From positions 1 to 64,000 of the IMG/VR virus record IMGVR_UViG_3300024265_000033: 64,000 bases of DNA. One strand, 5' to 3'. The notes beneath the pieces are model-generated. The model ran no database searches. It was not told where the DNA came from and saw nothing but the letters and a program-made list of their open reading frames with translations. This stretch comes from a virus. Shown in pieces: positions 37,336 to 57,784 of this stretch. Each line of letters starts with the position of its first letter. Position 1 is the stretch's first letter. The translations under genes were made by a program, and so were the position numbers.

Positions 37336-37386
37336 AATGCCTCTTATGCTCCCTAAAAATAAGGTCCGCGACCAACTCACCACTCA

Positions 37387-37409
37387 CAAAAGCCGCCCTC
37401 AACGGACGG
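37387..37409 (-). terminator. weak rho-independent terminator after tRNA-like RNA B
   Basis: A 6-bp stem CCGTCC/GGGCGG (one G-U pair) with loop GTTGA is followed by CTTTTG on the minus strand. It lies 18 bases downstream of the encoded ACCA end of RNA B. Confidence 0.4.
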
Positions 37410-37427
37410 GCAGGTGACGCAAAATTT

Positions 37428-37572
37428 TGGTCCGAGAGGCAGGGATTCTCACCCATGCACCGTCGCCCTCATGCAAGGAGTATCCATCGCGGCGATCAAC
37501 CCTAGGACCTCTTCTCGCTTATAGACAACACACCCCCGAGTGGGATGCGCGTATATATTCCGCCACTCTCGG
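37428..37572 (-). ncRNA. tRNA-like RNA B (expanded tRNA, CCA encoded)
   Basis: 145 nt. The ends pair as a perfect 7-bp acceptor stem (CCGAGAG with CTCTCGG) followed by ACCA. After the 5' strand comes TG, then a leucine-tRNA-like D-arm (GCG-GAATATATA-CGC). A T-arm-like hairpin (GGG-TGAGAAT-CCC plus outer pairs with one bulge) abuts the 3' acceptor strand. The loop lacks the usual T-T-C. The space between D- and T-arm is about 90 nt instead of 30-45. A sigma70-type promoter places the start exactly at the first base. It could be a diverged tRNA, an intron-bearing tRNA or a decoy; no clean anticodon arm is seen. Confidence 0.55.
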
Positions 37573-37578
37573 AATTAC

Positions 37579-37607
37579 AGTATCTCAAATTAGGGGGATT
37601 TTGTCAA
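37579..37607 (-). promoter_or_regulatory. promoter of tRNA-like RNA B
   Basis: Minus strand: TTGACA at 37602-37607, 17 bp spacer, GATACT at 37579-37584. The first base of the predicted acceptor stem (37572) is 7 bases downstream, at the expected start. The sequence from -35 to +1 is very similar to the promoter of RNA A. Confidence 0.65.
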
Positions 37608-37632
37608 GGATAAAGCTGCGTCCCCTGTTTTT

Positions 37633-37764
37633 GAAAGAGACAGGATTCGATACCTGCAAACGCTGGACCTCATATAATAACCAGCATACATTTGATCGAA
37701 GGAGCTGCTAATAGCAACTTTGTCCCTGATCGCCTAAGGCGCGTTTATCTTTCGCCACTCTTTC
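37633..37764 (-). ncRNA. tRNA-like RNA A (expanded tRNA, no CCA encoded)
   Basis: 132 nt. A perfect 7-bp terminal stem (GAAAGAG with CTCTTTC) is followed on the 3' side by a single A and no CCA. TG and a D-arm-like hairpin (GCG-AAAGATAAA-CGC) follow the 5' strand. A T-arm (GCAGG-TATCGAAT-CCTGT) abuts the 3' acceptor strand; its loop looks like TTCGAAT with one inserted base. Extra hairpins fill the middle (GTTGCT-ATT-AGCAGC and ATGCTGG...CCAGCGT). Same layout as RNA B and the same promoter type. Confidence 0.5.
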
Positions 37765-37772
37765 TTAATTGC

Positions 37773-37801
37773 AATATCTCAAATATGGAGAGTTTTGTCA
37801 A
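37773..37801 (-). promoter_or_regulatory. promoter of tRNA-like RNA A
   Basis: Minus strand: TTGACA at 37796-37801, 17 bp spacer, GATATT at 37773-37778. The RNA's first base (37764) lies 9 bases downstream. The -35 region overlaps the stop end of the MuF-like gene spacing. Confidence 0.6.
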
Positions 37802-37804
37802 GTA

Positions 37805-38692
37805 CTATTGAACTTTTTCTTGGATGTATTCAGCCCAAGCTTCTTGGCCTATGAAAGTGACTGAGCCTCCGGGAAGGAGTCTGAATCCCGGCTTGAGTTC
37901 GATGACTTGGGAGCATCGCTCATTGGGATGTGTGGACATGGCCGTAGGCTGCCAATCTGCCGCCTTCTTGCCGTAATTGGAACCGTTGGATAAAAGCTCT
38001 GACATTCTGTATAGTTTTGGGCTACCGTCAGAATCCATATAAAACCTGCGACAATATTTACACAGGGCTGCGTCATTTTTGACAATCCGGTAGACGTACA
38101 CCTCTTTCATATCTTTGGTCGGGTTGTCATCCACAATGCGATCCACAGAACCGAGGCTTATTGCATTGCTCATTTCGGTGTTGACAATGCGGTCCCAATT
38201 GCGGTTTGCGTCCCTAGAATAGTCTCTGAGCTGGGTCTTCAACCCCCTAACGCTTTTATCCTTGGATAAGTCGTCTAATTTCTGTAGCTTATCGAATTTG
38301 AACTGATTATTTGTGTCACGAATATAGCCCTCTATTTGTGACAAAACATTGGTCTTTTGCTTCTCGATGAGATGCTTCATGTTGGAATGTAAATGATCCT
38401 TCGAAGCCTCGTGAGTGGCCGCGCCCGGGAGGGTCTGAACCTTCCTTTGCTGTGCTTTCATCTCCCCTACATTAGTAGGAGCTGTGAGCTTGCCGTGCTC
38501 GTTCAAATAATTATGATGATAAATTGCTTCCAAGACTGACTCTTCGCCTTTGAGATTTATGCCCGCTTCAATGAGTTTTCTGCGCTGATAGTCCGTGATG
38601 CCCTTCTTTCCGAGGGTGCCTACCAAGAGCCCAGCGTGATGCTTTTCTATAACGGCCTTGATTTTTGCTATTGTTTTTTCGTCAAGTACCAT
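37805..38692 (-). CDS. MuF-like head morphogenesis protein
   Basis: 295 residues, directly downstream of the portal gene (after one small gene). The C-terminal region reads LCKYCRRFYMDSDGSPKLYR, then a TAMSTHPNERCSQVIELKPG segment, the C/H-P-N-E-R-C pattern typical of SPP1 gp7/MuF head proteins. The N-terminal 200 residues are helical. Such proteins sit inside the head with the portal and assist DNA ejection or minor-head assembly. No toxin domain is fused. Confidence 0.75.
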   Translation of the reverse strand: MVLDEKTIAKIKAVIEKHHAGLLVGTLGKKGITDYQRRKLIEAGINLKGEESVLEAIYHHNYLNEHGKLTAPTNVGEMKAQQRKVQTLPGAATHEASKDHLHSNMKHLIEKQKTNVLSQIEGYIRDTNNQFKFDKLQKLDDLSKDKSVRGLKTQLRDYSRDANRNWDRIVNTEMSNAISLGSVDRIVDDNPTKDMKEVYVYRIVKNDAALCKYCRRFYMDSDGSPKLYRMSELLSNGSNYGKKAADWQPTAMSTHPNERCSQVIELKPGFRLLPGGSVTFIGQEAWAEYIQEKVQ

Positions 38693-51415: not shown

Positions 51416-51444
51416 ATATTACAACACTCTCTAAAAGAAGTCAA
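51416..51444 (-). promoter_or_regulatory. sigma70-like promoter
   Basis: Minus strand: TTGACT at 51439-51444, 17 bp spacer, TAATAT at 51416-51421. It overlaps the 3' end of the methyltransferase gene and drives the ParB-like gene. Confidence 0.65.
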
Positions 51445-52202
51445 GTATTTTCTATCCTTTTTTTGGCTATTTCGAAAAAACCAGAATCCAGCTCCACGAT
51501 CACAGCTTTTCTACCTAAGTTCAAGGCGGCCACTCCTGTAGTACCAGAGCCGCCAAATGGGTCGAATATGACATCCCCGGGTTTGGTAGTCAGGTTTATT
51601 ACTTGCTCTGCCAGCTTTACGGGCTTTTGTGTAGGATGTCCGCACTTCTCTGCCTTTTTAAGGGAGAATACCCAATCCACTATCTCTGATATACGCTTTC
51701 TGTCAGCGAGTTCTTCTTTACCGGGCTTCCCTCGCATTACTTTAACAGGGTTGAATTCGGCTTTGCCTTTGGAAAAATAACTGATAGGTTCCCACTCGCG
51801 CTTCATAGTGGTTTTCAAACCCCCTCCGATGGCAAATCTCTTGTTCCAAGCCACAGTGCCTTTGTATTCGAACCCGCATTTTTGGATGAGATCTCCATAT
51901 TTGATTAAAAAGGGCATGTTGTGATGAAGGAACAAAAATGACCCGTCTTTCATGACGCGATGACACTCTTTCCAAAAAGACTCCCACTCAGTGCCTCCTT
52001 GATCGCCATCTATTGCTTTCTCGAATCTTGATTCACTCTCTCCGGTTTTATTCCACGTTTTGTCGCCCGGGATGTTAGACAAATAGTTCATCTCATAAGG
52101 TGGATCGGTGTAGATCAAATCTACGCTAGAGTCTTCCATAATTTTCATATGGTTTTCACTCAAATCGTTGAATAGCTTTATTCCCTTTTTTTCGAAATTC
52201 AT
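51441..52202 (-). CDS. DNA adenine/cytosine N-methyltransferase (beta class)
   Basis: 253 residues. Catalytic motif IV DPPY (LIYTDPPYEMNYLS) near residue 35 precedes the SAM-binding motif I (IFDPFGGSGTTGVAALNLGR) near residue 217, the beta-class order. A DPPY box points to N6-adenine or N4-cytosine methylation. It probably marks phage DNA against host restriction; no partner restriction gene lies beside it. Confidence 0.9.
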   Translation of the reverse strand: MNFEKKGIKLFNDLSENHMKIMEDSSVDLIYTDPPYEMNYLSNIPGDKTWNKTGESESRFEKAIDGDQGGTEWESFWKECHRVMKDGSFLFLHHNMPFLIKYGDLIQKCGFEYKGTVAWNKRFAIGGGLKTTMKREWEPISYFSKGKAEFNPVKVMRGKPGKEELADRKRISEIVDWVFSLKKAEKCGHPTQKPVKLAEQVINLTTKPGDVIFDPFGGSGTTGVAALNLGRKAVIVELDSGFFEIAKKRIENT

Positions 52203-54696: not shown

Positions 54697-54725
54697 AGTA
54701 TCTCAAACCCGGTGCAAATAGTCAA
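54697..54725 (-). promoter_or_regulatory. sigma70-like promoter
   Basis: Minus strand: TTGACT at 54720-54725, 17 bp spacer, GATACT at 54697-54702, just upstream of the ATG at 54674 and inside the end of the ligase gene. Confidence 0.6.
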
Positions 54726-55801
54726 GTTAAAATGTTGCCTGTAGGCCTAATTTGTTTCTTAATATATTCATGCACTTGACTCATATTCCTATCGAGCCTT
54801 ACAAAAGCGGCTGCAGGATGCTTTAATTTGAGAGTCTTATTTTTGATGCCCAGTCCTATCTCTCGTTTTATGTGAGACTCCTCAGATACCTCTAAATCGA
54901 GTACCAAACGATAATCCGCATCTATTTCACACCACAATGCAATGTGGCGGCTCTCAAGCGTCGCGGCCATGTCATCGAACTGTTTGCGAAATTCTTCCGG
55001 GATCTCTTGTAATGTGTCTTGACTGACTTTGCCTCTTTCCATAGTCTCCCACAGAGCCAAGGGAGAGGCTCCTGAAAGGATGCGAGCTATTCTAAGATAG
55101 GCTTTACTCTTGATCTTTACGCGCTCCCCATTATTAAAGAGCACGACAAAGCCCTCTTCATCAGCCCCCATAGTTTGTTGTTTGGCTATCATCTCTTCAA
55201 TTGAGATATCGAGCTTCTTTACCAACTCAAGACCTGTGAGTTCTGCAGCCAGCATCAATTGTGGCCAAGCATATTCTATCCCAGTCGAGGTGTCGTACAT
55301 TGCGAGCAGGACAAGCTTTCGCTCCGTTCCATAATCTAAAATGATTCTATTCTCTGGATAAATGATCTCAACCAAGTATGTGGCTTCCTTGACAAATTTA
55401 TCAGTATTATATAAAGCCAGCATGCCATGAGCCTCTAGGGCTTGATCTGATGAGAAACTACCTCTGGTATTGACGCGCCACATGTCATTGTGATAATAGA
55501 CAATGCCTAAAGAGCCGTCCGCTTTGTCGCACACTCGATATTGCGACTTATCTTTTTTGATAAGGTTCCGCCACTTGGATGCTGCGAGTTCTTCCCAATT
55601 GAAGAACTTAGGGAATGCCTTAGCTACAACTCGGCCTGTGTTTTTGTCGTACACCGTGCCCCTTGCGTTCTTCGTGTACTTATTCCATTTCTTTTCATAA
55701 GTGCAATGGTCTGTATAATTGTATAGCACTAGGTCGCCGTCTTCTACCTTTCGCAAAAAGCCATCGGCTGCCAATTCATCAAGCCTTTTAATATGATCCA
55801 T
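54722..55801 (-). CDS. RNA ligase (T4 Rnl1-like)
   Basis: 359 residues from the ATG at 55801. All nucleotidyltransferase motifs are present: motif Ia PKFFNW, active-site Lys in CDKADGSLGIVYYH (about K93), motif III YLVEIIYPENRIIL, motif IV DEEGFVV and motif V VKIKSKAYL. It adenylates itself and seals 5'-phosphate/3'-OH RNA ends. It lies next to an NTase and HD-Pnk, the minimal set for repairing cut tRNA or mRNA, as in T4 defence against anticodon nucleases. Confidence 0.9.
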   Translation of the reverse strand: MDHIKRLDELAADGFLRKVEDGDLVLYNYTDHCTYEKKWNKYTKNARGTVYDKNTGRVVAKAFPKFFNWEELAASKWRNLIKKDKSQYRVCDKADGSLGIVYYHNDMWRVNTRGSFSSDQALEAHGMLALYNTDKFVKEATYLVEIIYPENRIILDYGTERKLVLLAMYDTSTGIEYAWPQLMLAAELTGLELVKKLDISIEEMIAKQQTMGADEEGFVVLFNNGERVKIKSKAYLRIARILSGASPLALWETMERGKVSQDTLQEIPEEFRKQFDDMAATLESRHIALWCEIDADYRLVLDLEVSEESHIKREIGLGIKNKTLKLKHPAAAFVRLDRNMSQVHEYIKKQIRPTGNILT

Positions 55802-56780
55802 TGATAACCCCCAAATGAATTCGTGCAAGGACATCGTCCAATTTGTGTCGATTGAGCTTGGCGGGCAAACTACTGGAGAGCCGTGCCCGTTCTAAATCTA
55901 TCAAATTACTCTCTATGAGAACTGCTACCTCTTTGTAATCAATCAATCCTTGTTTGATATCGGTGACTAATTTCCTATCGGATTCTTTGAGAGGTAGCGT
56001 GATGTGATTAGTCTCCAAAAGCTCTACTCCCTGAATACTGACTCTTACTGCGTGACTCAAAGCTTTCCAATCAATGCCATTGTTGTTTTTGGCCTCTCTC
56101 GCTCTGTGTCCATAATTCTTGTAGATCTTCTTTAGAATCTCCAACACATAAATGAAGTTGCAGTGGTAGTCGAACTTTTTACCTAGGATATCCATGGCAG
56201 GGGTCAAAGGACCTCCCATCCCTTTGGTAGTATCCAGTTGTATAAAATGGATGTGATCGAAATCCTTTAATGCTTCTTGGATCTCATACCAAGCGTGTTT
56301 GAGTTTGGCTCCTTGAAAATCAAATCCTTTTTGAACTTCTTTGAGAACCGTAATACATTTGGATAGTTCTCCCATCCGAGAGCCTTTGATGCCGTATTTG
56401 TTTGCTTGCTGTCGGGCGTACCCAACCATAGCACTCACTTGACTGCTTAGAAAGAAACCTCTATCCCCACGCAGCTCTTTCCAAAGACGGCTCTGCTCTA
56501 GTATGAATTCCTCGGGAGTGAAGAGTAGCTCAAGTGCTGCAGTGTCTCCTTTCTCAAGCATCTTTAAGAACTTCTTGAAGCTGTAGAATTCCACATCAAC
56601 GTCGTCCTTTGAATTCTTGAGATTGTCATCCCCTGTGGAAGATCGTCGCGTGTCCTTGTAATTGCCTATTAGAATTTCTCTAGCCTCGGGTAGATATACG
56701 CCCTTGAAATCCTTATCGGACGTCGGAGTGTTGGTACCAAACAAATGTGAGCCTGCTACTGCTTTGACTAATATTTTCAT
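55788..56780 (-). CDS. nucleotidyltransferase-like protein (T4 NrdC.11 type)
   Basis: 330 residues from the ATG at 56780 (GGGAG 6 bases upstream). The Pol-beta NTase signature VAGSHLFGTNTPTSDKDFKG sits at the N-terminus (the G-S...S-D-x-D pattern); the C-terminal two-thirds are helical. Similar proteins (T4 NrdC.11) are linked to RNA end processing. The start overlaps the HD-Pnk stop (ATGA). Confidence 0.75.
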   Translation of the reverse strand: MKILVKAVAGSHLFGTNTPTSDKDFKGVYLPEAREILIGNYKDTRRSSTGDDNLKNSKDDVDVEFYSFKKFLKMLEKGDTAALELLFTPEEFILEQSRLWKELRGDRGFFLSSQVSAMVGYARQQANKYGIKGSRMGELSKCITVLKEVQKGFDFQGAKLKHAWYEIQEALKDFDHIHFIQLDTTKGMGGPLTPAMDILGKKFDYHCNFIYVLEILKKIYKNYGHRAREAKNNNGIDWKALSHAVRVSIQGVELLETNHITLPLKESDRKLVTDIKQGLIDYKEVAVLIESNLIDLERARLSSSLPAKLNRHKLDDVLARIHLGVINGSY

Positions 56781-57784
56781 GATAACTCCCATACGATTTC
56801 GTCGAACTCGTCGTACAGTGGTGGATAAAAGCTTTTAATCATAAACTCGAATACGTCCGGGGTAAGCACCTTACCAGTCCTCTCGGCGTTACGCTGATGG
56901 ATGACTGACATTGGAGGCAACAATACTACTGCCTTCTTGTGCCAACTCTTATCTAATTGACTGAGTATTCGCCTACGACTCTTCTTACTCATGTGAGTCA
57001 TGTCAGCTACAAAGTTCTTATGGGCCTTAACCAATTCTGTTTTTCTTATTTGCTCTAACCTAGTCACAGCCTTTTGATCCACACTTGCCCACTTTTGAGT
57101 GTATGTGTCGCCTGTGCCCAGCTCTTCTACAAATGAATCGCGTGATAGTACCGCGTGGTCTGGAAGGTTTTGCTTTATGTATGTAGATTTGCCGCTACAA
57201 GGCAGGCCAATCATGACTACGGCTTCTCTAACCTTAGACACATCGAATATTCTATTGGGAGGGGCTGGAAATATAGGCACTACTTCTTCGTGCGAAAAGA
57301 ATCGGCCCTCTCTGTCTGCGGTGGATAATGCTATCAGTTTGTCATACAACTCAGGATTCGCTACCATTCGCTCAGATAACTGTTTAGGAGTGAGTTTGAA
57401 GGGCTCCGTGTGCATAGCAATCATTTGAAATATAAGTCTACTCTCGTAAGGAGGTACATCAAGATCCTTCAAGATATCTAGAGCCATGAATGCAGACACC
57501 GCTTCGTGACTGAAAAACCTTACTCGCTTCGTCTTCTCAACCGCCTCTCTACACAGAGGCTTTCCAATATCATGCAGCAAGGCTGCTAGCTGCACACACT
57601 CGTCGTATTGTTCGGCCATTTTACATACCATCATTGTATGAGTCCACACATCGCCCTCTAAATGATAGGGATTGAGACTGAAGTCGCCCTCGGGATAATC
57701 GAAATGATGATCGCTCTCTTGCATGTGGGACACATTCTCTGGGTAGTTCTCTTGGAACCATACTACAAGCTTATTCATTGTCAT
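56777..57784 (-). CDS. HD-Pnk: HD phosphoesterase fused to 5'-OH polynucleotide kinase
   Basis: 335 residues. Residues 20-180 hold an HD phosphohydrolase domain (HTMMVCKMAE, then LAALLHDIGKPLCREAVE; H and HD pairs). Residues 180-335 are a P-loop kinase (VMIGLPCSGKSTYIKQNL, SRDSFVEEL), the 5'-kinase module of T4 Pnkp. In characterised HD-Pnk enzymes the HD part removes 2',3'-cyclic phosphate and the kinase adds 5'-phosphate, healing both RNA ends. Here it replaces T4's HAD-type Pnkp. It forms a repair set with the NTase and ligase. Confidence 0.9.
   Translation of the reverse strand: MTMNKLVVWFQENYPENVSHMQESDHHFDYPEGDFSLNPYHLEGDVWTHTMMVCKMAEQYDECVQLAALLHDIGKPLCREAVEKTKRVRFFSHEAVSAFMALDILKDLDVPPYESRLIFQMIAMHTEPFKLTPKQLSERMVANPELYDKLIALSTADREGRFFSHEEVVPIFPAPPNRIFDVSKVREAVVMIGLPCSGKSTYIKQNLPDHAVLSRDSFVEELGTGDTYTQKWASVDQKAVTRLEQIRKTELVKAHKNFVADMTHMSKKSRRRILSQLDKSWHKKAVVLLPPMSVIHQRNAERTGKVLTPDVFEFMIKSFYPPLYDEFDEIVWELS

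What the first reader, a model, noticed from the sequence alone, without database searches (positions are those of the whole stretch)
37387..37804. Two promoter-driven tRNA-like RNAs with expanded middles
Between the MuF-like and next small gene lie two tandem units, 132 and 145 nt. Each has a perfect 7-bp acceptor stem, TG plus a leucine-tRNA-like D-arm (GCG/CGC), and a T-arm touching the acceptor stem. One unit encodes ACCA. Each has a TTGACA-17-GATAYT promoter whose start falls close to the first acceptor base. The D-to-T distance is about 90 nt, far above even long-variable-arm tRNAs, and the T-loops are altered. This suggests a diverged tRNA, an intron-bearing tRNA or a new tRNA mimic, perhaps a decoy for tRNA-cutting defences, given the phage's RNA-repair genes.
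Basis: partly seen in the sequence, partly recalled or inferred. Interest (0 to 1): 0.8.

Follow-up and report, generated by a model that had tools for sequence, protein, structure and literature searches.

The report
Phage tRNA-like RNAs with swappable middles
Many unrelated phages carry small RNA genes that keep the two ends of a leucine tRNA but replace the codon-reading part with a rapidly exchanged, folded insert; this looks like an unrecognised class of viral RNA, and its function is still unknown.

Summary
The two units are real. Unit A is window 37764-37633 (-); unit B is 37572-37428 (-). They fill a gap between two genes. Each has its own promoter, a perfect 7-bp acceptor stem, U8-G9, a Leu-type D-arm (GCG...CGC) and a T-arm touching the acceptor, with 83 or 90 nt in between and no anticodon arm found. 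ARAGORN and Rfam find no tRNA.

Scans of viral contigs show a widespread class: 95 distinct elements by a strict descriptor (0 in reversed sequence), 66-329 nt, in phages that share hardly any neighbouring gene. Acceptor and T-stem covary strongly (0.613 versus 0.152 shuffled). The T-loop is UAUCGAAU (unit A) or GGG-UGARAGU-CCC (unit B, with a bulge). The middles are hypervariable. Orthologous loci hold different middles, and one middle can recur in frames with different acceptors and T-loops. Position -1 is often U, as in ordinary tRNAs, but discriminator base and encoded CCA are relaxed, so charging is probably not selected.

Best reading: a natural tRNA scaffold that carries an exchangeable effector RNA and does not decode. 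Structure and class are shown; expression, processing and function are inferred. The decoy idea remains open; intron, tmRNA and pseudogene readings are disfavoured. No description was found in the open-access library searched.

The parts
37773..37801 (-). promoter A, TTGACA-17-GATATT with TG before the -10
   Evidence: 10/12 matches; last base is 9 nt before the first acceptor base; similar motif at 54725(-)
37633..37764 (-). unit A, type-1 tRNA-like RNA, 132 nt
   Evidence: member of the covarying set A2
37758..37764 (-). unit A acceptor 5' strand GAAAGAG (pairs with 37633-37639 CUCUUUC)
   Evidence: 7/7 Watson-Crick; helix 1
37741..37755 (-). unit A D-arm GCG-AAAGAUAAA-CGC, Leu-like, lacks GG (G18G19)
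   Evidence: class consensus GCG-GAAGAUAGA-CGC
37658..37740 (-). unit A hypervariable middle, 83 nt, in place of anticodon and variable arms
   Evidence: folds into its own hairpins; no antisense match longer than 13 nt in the 121-kb record
37640..37657 (-). unit A T-arm GCAGG-UAUCGAAU-CCUGU (8-nt T-loop), no spacer to acceptor
   Evidence: matches inside unannotated gaps of phage tRNA clusters and the class T-arm
37579..37607 (-). promoter B, TTGACA-17-GATACT with TG before the -10
   Evidence: closely resembles promoter A
37428..37572 (-). unit B, type-2-like tRNA-like RNA, 141 nt core plus encoded ACCA
   Evidence: T-loop UGAGAAU resembles type 2 UGARAGU
37549..37563 (-). unit B D-arm GCG-GAAUAUAUA-CGC
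37459..37548 (-). unit B hypervariable middle, 90 nt
37439..37458 (-). unit B T-arm GCAUGGG-UGAGAAU-CCCUGC, long T-stem with one bulge
37428..37431 (-). encoded ACCA of unit B
   Evidence: only about a tenth of class members encode CCA
37393..37409 (-). intrinsic-terminator-like hairpin after unit B
   Evidence: the number of such sites in the region is not above chance

Best explanation
Shown by sequence: both units belong to a widespread class of phage RNAs built on a tRNA-Leu-like frame. The frame has a 7-bp acceptor, U8 and G9, a GCG/CGC D-arm keeping A14 and A15, U48, and a T-arm stacked on the acceptor. The anticodon and variable arms are replaced by a folded insert that is hypervariable and exchanged as a module. 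Inferred: the frame works as a natural tRNA scaffold. The RNA is transcribed, trimmed at its 5' end by host RNase P in most members (in this phage the promoters may set the end almost directly), trimmed at its 3' end by tRNA 3' processing, and protected by the tRNA-like fold. It cannot decode. The insert is the working part, a trans-acting effector, most likely an inhibitor or decoy aimed at a fast-changing host factor, which would explain why inserts are swapped while the frame stays.
For: Both units fold this way with their own promoters. 77 type-1 and 18 type-2 distinct elements by strict descriptor, 0 in reversed sequence. With instances taken from a D-arm pattern and the T-loop located by loop letters alone, acceptors pair at 6/7 or better in 29/33 (type 1) and 24/29 (type 2); full 7/7 pairing occurs in 19/33 and 19/29 against 3-7% with swapped partners. 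Covariation score 0.613 against 0.152 (sd 0.017) shuffled and at most 0.148 slid. Position 48, not used in the descriptor, is U in 94/95. -1 U is about 52% in elements and 204/336 in ordinary phage tRNAs, so the 5' mark is kept; CCA is encoded in 10/95 versus 158/336, and the discriminator is C in 19/95 versus 5/336, so 3' charging marks are relaxed. Cassette exchange: L064/L080, L099, L132, L136 and L165 share the acceptor and flanks on one or both sides but hold different inserts of different length; L255/L262 (acceptor AGTCAGG, canonical-length T-loop) carry the insert of L067/L074/L100 (acceptor AGCAAGG, T-loop UAUCGAAU); L081 (type 1) and L195 (type 2) share insert segments. Inserts show compensatory changes: CGCA/UGCG to CGCG/CGCG, and the L241/L247 hairpins.
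Against: No transcript, processing or phenotype data exist for any member. The inserts share no motif found here, so a single target is unlikely or unrecognised. Insert folding is only modestly better than mononucleotide shuffles (mean z -0.97). Some members are 66-76 nt with barely any insert (S-CAM9, the 76-nt element of the E. coli phages). No conserved partner gene was found. Antisense action inside the own genome is not supported.
Confidence: 0.55

Rival explanations
1. The frame itself is the active part: a tRNA mimic that titrates a tRNA-recognising host enzyme or defence nuclease or toxin, with the vulnerable anticodon and variable loops replaced so that it is not cut.
For: Acceptor, D and T arms and U48 are the conserved parts. 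Known defences cut tRNA: Septu and retron-Eco7 cut the tRNA-Tyr variable loop and phage tRNA can counter them (PMC13096335). The window phage has an RNA-repair operon. Some members sit in tRNA clusters, and some inserts contain further T-arm-like or tRNA sequence (L183, L223).
Against: A decoy of constant form does not need a different folded insert in each phage. No anticodon arm, so anticodon nucleases have no site. T-loop and D-loop contacts of the elbow are altered, and the 3' end is relaxed. 79/95 elements have no ordinary tRNA within 500 nt.
Confidence: 0.2
2. A cis-acting leader or riboswitch-like element, as proposed for the manA motif.
For: Weak manA matches to unit A and to a unit in L065 (18.8 and 25.9 bits). 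The manA RNAs of P-SSM4 and P-SSM2 have a comparable layout: closing stem, UG, T-like arm touching the closing stem.
Against: No consistent downstream gene. A terminator-like hairpin follows unit B. Own promoters and tRNA-like ends in the window units, some members inside tRNA clusters, and encoded CCA in some members.
Confidence: 0.08
3. A charged, tmRNA-like or LeuRS-dependent RNA.
For: Like the tmRNA tRNA-like domain, it lacks an anticodon and has a long insert between D and T arms. A14, A15 and U48 are retained; from general knowledge these contribute to Leu identity.
Against: Discriminator base is not constrained (C in 20%) and CCA is rarely encoded. Insert alignments show no conserved reading frame. 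A real permuted tmRNA-like gene occurs separately next to one element (L165).
Confidence: 0.05
4. tRNA-Leu genes carrying introns.
For: Leu-like D-arm; some type-3 elements keep full Leu D-loops and canonical T-loops.
Against: No anticodon arm found by ARAGORN in 93 of 95; no Rfam intron family at the loci searched; members down to 66-76 nt; inserts interchangeable among frames.
Confidence: 0.03
5. Decaying tRNA pseudogenes with neutral insertions.
For: Hypervariable length and sequence of the middle; annotated 'pseudo' tRNAs occur in some phage clusters.
Against: Frame stems covary strongly, U48 and D-loop A residues are kept, inserts show compensatory changes, and dedicated promoters exist in this phage.
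Confidence: 0.04

Closest known systems
tRNA-Leu (Rfam RF00005)
   Same: 7-bp acceptor, U8, GCG/CGC D-arm with A14 and A15, U48, T-arm stacked on the acceptor, -1 U; some type-3 elements score 30-42 bits as tRNA
   Different: No anticodon arm found; types 1 and 2 mostly lack G18G19 and have 8-nt UAUCGAAU or UGARAGU T-loops; insert of tens to over 200 nt; discriminator and CCA not maintained; ARAGORN calls only 2 of 95
manA RNA motif (RF01745)
   Same: Closing stem followed by UG, several helices, and a T-like arm GG-UA...AAU-CC directly on the closing stem; phages; own promoter in P-SSM4 and P-SSM2
   Different: 5-bp closing stem, 5' extra hairpin, 11-nt or longer T-like loop, conserved middle; unit A scores far below the family cut-off (18.8 versus 55.2 bits); described as a cis-regulatory candidate (PMC2864571)
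T4 RNA C (species 1 RNA, rnaC)
   Same: 139 nt, in a phage tRNA region; canonical T-arm adjacent to an acceptor-like stem with covarying pairs in Moon, KMB20, EnC15 and VR25; expanded body; function unknown (PMC9697503, PMC3014915)
   Different: No Leu D-arm, two conserved U-U mismatches in the acceptor-like stem, canonical T-loop, body much less variable
tRNA-like domain of tmRNA
   Same: Acceptor, D and T arms without an anticodon and with an insert between D and T arms (general knowledge)
   Different: No conserved reading frame seen in the inserts; discriminator and CCA relaxed, so charging not under evident selection
Artificial tRNA scaffolds used to express RNA (general knowledge)
   Same: Insert placed where the anticodon arm was, stabilised by the tRNA frame
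   Different: Natural here, with altered D/T elbow

Membership tests
tRNA | acceptor, D and T arms in cloverleaf order | tested here: met
tRNA | anticodon arm with 7-nt loop | tested here: not met
   ARAGORN 0; no RF00005 hit to the units at E<=5
tRNA | G18G19 in the D-loop and UUCRA T-loop | tested here: not met
   unit A AAAGAUAAA / UAUCGAAU; unit B GAAUAUAUA / UGAGAAU; class consensus
tRNA | discriminator + CCA, aminoacylation | tested here: inconclusive
   unit B encodes ACCA, unit A does not; class shows relaxed 3' marks; charging itself not testable
manA RNA (RF01745) | score above the gathering cut-off of 55.2 bits | tested here: not met
   18.8 bits for unit A, 25.9 bits in L065
manA RNA (RF01745) | closing stem-UG and T-like arm on the closing stem | tested here: met
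   compared by eye with L277 and L278; a resemblance of layout, not proof of kinship
tmRNA | match to tmRNA models, tag reading frame | tested here: not met
   ARAGORN 0 tmRNA in the window; no tmRNA family at E<=5 for the units
tRNA with group I or other Rfam-listed intron | intron model match | tested here: not met
   no intron family
class described here (frame) | 7-bp acceptor-U[GA]-Leu-like D-arm-long middle-NU-T-arm (type 1 or type 2 loop)-acceptor | tested here: met
   unit A meets all; unit B meets all except one bulge in its long T-stem
T4 RNA C | sequence homology to rnaC | not tested
   resemblance in layout only

The most novel reading that the evidence does not exclude
A previously unrecognised, widespread class of phage RNA in which a tRNA-Leu-derived, non-decoding frame acts as a universal carrier for exchangeable effector RNAs, a modular RNA-based counter-defence or host-control system, with manA and T4 RNA C as distant or parallel members.
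Probability: 0.35. Interest if true: 0.93.

Novelty: categorically new. Interest (0 to 1): 0.85.

Why it matters
If right, phages carry an unrecognised class of tRNA-shaped RNA genes that annotation pipelines miss: of 95 distinct elements ARAGORN flags 2, and more than 80 sequenced phage genomes, mostly of E. coli, carry one unannotated inside a tRNA cluster. It offers a natural version of the tRNA scaffold, raises how T-loop and D-loop contacts work without G18G19, and gives a testable frame for long-unexplained phage RNAs such as T4 RNA C and manA. Rapid swapping of the insert points to a host-phage conflict at the RNA level.

Tried and rejected
Pattern GAGTGGCGNANNNNNNACGCGC gave mostly chance hits and ordinary tRNA-Leu. 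A first idea that the D-loop GAUA pairs with the T-loop UAUC was dropped because type-2 elements keep GAAGAUAGA with a different T-loop. Antisense inserts: longest match in the own record 13 nt, near chance. Shared promoter across the class: none; only AT-rich flank and -1 U. Conserved neighbour gene: none, though terminase small subunit recurs in a few loci. Known RNA in inserts: no Rfam hit except ordinary tRNA. Bacterial genomes: only 10 loci for the type-1 T-arm pattern, mostly MAG contigs. Plasmids: only weak chance-level hits. Literature: nothing describing the class in the open-access library; subscription papers and preprints were not searchable, so prior description cannot be excluded. 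I did not run a covariance-model census; prevalence is therefore not measured.

Full report
WHAT IS IN THE WINDOW. The genes around the site are on the minus strand. Between the gene ending at 37805 and the gene starting at 37383 lie two units. Unit A (37764-37633): GAAAGAG-UG-GCG-AAAGAUAAA-CGC, 83 nt, GCAGG-UAUCGAAU-CCUGU, CUCUUUC. Unit B (37572-37428): CCGAGAG-UG-GCG-GAAUAUAUA-CGC, 90 nt, GCAUGGG-UGAGAAU-CCCUGC, CUCUCGG, ACCA. Free-energy folding recovers acceptor, D and T arms in both. Each unit has a TTGACA-17-GATAYT promoter ending 9 or 7 nt before the acceptor; the same promoter type occurs at 54725(-). ARAGORN and Rfam at gathering score find nothing. The record is a 121-kb virus contig whose portal protein resembles SPO1-like phages at about 35% identity.

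IT IS NOT ALONE. BLAST of the region against phages gave only tiny hits, but several were informative: the unit A T-arm lies, letter for letter, in unannotated gaps of tRNA clusters of E. coli Justusliebigvirus and Lactobacillus Tybeckvirus phages. Reading those gaps showed complete elements: GGACTTG-TA...CGAGTCC (76 nt) and TCATTAG-TA-TGC..GCA...CTAATGA (119 nt). A short one (66 nt) occurs in cyanophage S-CAM9 (L173 963-1028). BLAST shows the 76-nt element in more than 80 records, mostly E. coli phages. A scan of viral contigs with the T-arm GCAGGTATYGAATCCTG returned 110 stretches, most of which sit in such an element.

UNBIASED TESTS. A second scan used only the D-arm TGGCGGAAGATAGACGC, leaving acceptor and T-arm free. 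Of 72 instances, 35 have a strict acceptor partner plus adjacent T-arm within 330 nt, against 0.2% with swapped acceptors. When the T-loop is located by its loop letters only, in a slightly wider D-arm set, acceptors pair at 6/7 or better in 29/33 and 24/29 cases; 7/7 pairing is 19/33 and 19/29 against 3-7% in the swapped control. In that set 35 further instances had neither loop and were not scored; they include type-3 elements and some chance matches. On the 33 type-1 cores plus unit A, 94.9% of cells pair, the covariation score is 0.613 against 0.152 shuffled and at most 0.148 for slid partners; six of seven acceptor pairs and four of five T-stem pairs have changes on both sides. The D-stem does not vary because it was the search key. 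Across 2.4 Mb of fetched loci a strict descriptor found 77 distinct type-1 and 18 type-2 elements, and none in reversed sequence; these loci were fetched by class patterns, so this is not a prevalence estimate. The nucleotide before the T-stem (position 48), which was not used in the descriptor, is U in 94 of 95; with A15 in the D-loop it allows the A15-U48 pair typical of tRNA-Leu (general knowledge).

TYPES. Type 1: 5-bp T-stem and 8-nt loop UAUCGAAU (unit A). Type 2: 7-bp T-stem and loop UGARAGU (unit B is close, with a bulge and loop UGAGAAU). Type 3: canonical UUCGAAU loop but expanded middle, sometimes in arrays with the same acceptor (AGTCAGG...CCTGACT in L241 and L247). Some elements carry an insertion in the D-loop as well (L084, L135, L161, L166, L151).

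THE MIDDLE IS A MODULE. L064/L080, L099, L132, L136 and L165 share the acceptor GGATGGG and flanking sequence on one or both sides but hold different middles, the elements being 103 to 185 nt long. Conversely the same middle recurs in different frames: L255/L262 (acceptor AGTCAGG, canonical-length T-loop) and L067/L074/L100 (acceptor AGCAAGG, UAUCGAAU loop); L081 (type 1) and L195 (type 2) share segments. Within such families hairpins are kept by compensatory change (CGCA/UGCG to CGCG/CGCG; L241 versus L247). So the insert is a folded, inherited unit, not random filler, although on average its folding energy is only modestly better than shuffled (z -0.97).

ENDS. Ordinary phage tRNAs in the fetched loci have U at -1 in 204/336, encoded CCA in 158/336 and discriminator C in 5/336. 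Elements have U at -1 in about 52%, CCA in 10/95 and discriminator C in 19/95. I read this as keeping the RNase P-type 5' signal while relaxing what charging needs. That is inference; no RNA data were available.

CONTEXT. 79 of 95 elements have no tRNA within 500 nt. Neighbouring genes are almost all different; the largest shared families are terminase subunits in a few loci. Hence the class is scattered over unrelated phages. The window phage has an RNA-repair operon: RNA ligase 54722-55834, RlaP 55788-56792, HD + AAA_33 kinase 56777-57784.

COMPARISON. manA (RF01745) is the only Rfam family besides tRNA that rings on elements, weakly. Two true manA RNAs fetched from P-SSM4 and P-SSM2 show closing stem, UG and a T-like arm on the closing stem, with a promoter just upstream; manA is listed as a cis-regulatory candidate in PMC2864571. 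T4 RNA C, of unknown function (PMC9697503, PMC3014915), also ends in a T-arm touching an acceptor-like stem with covarying pairs. These are resemblances in layout; kinship was not established. Known defences cut the tRNA variable loop (Septu, retron-Eco7; PMC13096335), which keeps the decoy rival alive.

VERDICT. The intron reading is disfavoured. The best-supported mechanism is a non-decoding tRNA scaffold with an exchangeable effector insert; the function of the insert is open.

Noticed in passing
L165 2217-2429 (contig IMGVR_UViG_3300006483_000020): A permuted-tmRNA-like gene (RF04321, 49.6 bits against cut-off 47; RF01851 also rings) lies a few hundred bases from a type-1 element in a virus contig.
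   Followed up: partly
L172 1909-2047 (T4 rnaC) with L269-L272: T4 RNA C ends in a canonical T-arm stacked on an acceptor-like stem; acceptor and T-stem pairs covary among T4-like phages.
   Followed up: partly
L277 1501-1686 and L278 1501-1698 (P-SSM4, P-SSM2): manA RNAs have a tRNA-like layout (closing stem-UG, T-like arm on the closing stem) and TTGACA/TATAAT-like sequence right upstream.
   Followed up: partly
L183 2766-2838: ARAGORN and Rfam find a tRNA-Val-like gene nested inside the middle of a type-1 element.
   Followed up: no
L223 from about 1085: The middle of this element contains further T-arm-like hairpins next to stems, as if tRNA-like domains were nested.
   Followed up: no
L084, L135, L161, L166, L151: Extra hairpin-like insertion inside the D-loop, near where G18G19 would be.
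   Followed up: no
window 54722-57784: RNA-repair operon: T4 Rnl1-like ligase, RlaP, HD + AAA_33 kinase; a copy of the units' promoter type lies at 54725(-).
   Followed up: partly
L174 about 1435-1526 (Xanthomonas phage X1): Unannotated tRNA-like element with a canonical T-loop and expanded middle in a tRNA cluster, CCCGTTG...CGACGGG.
   Followed up: no
window 51441-52202: N6/N4 DNA methylase gene (PF01555).
   Followed up: no
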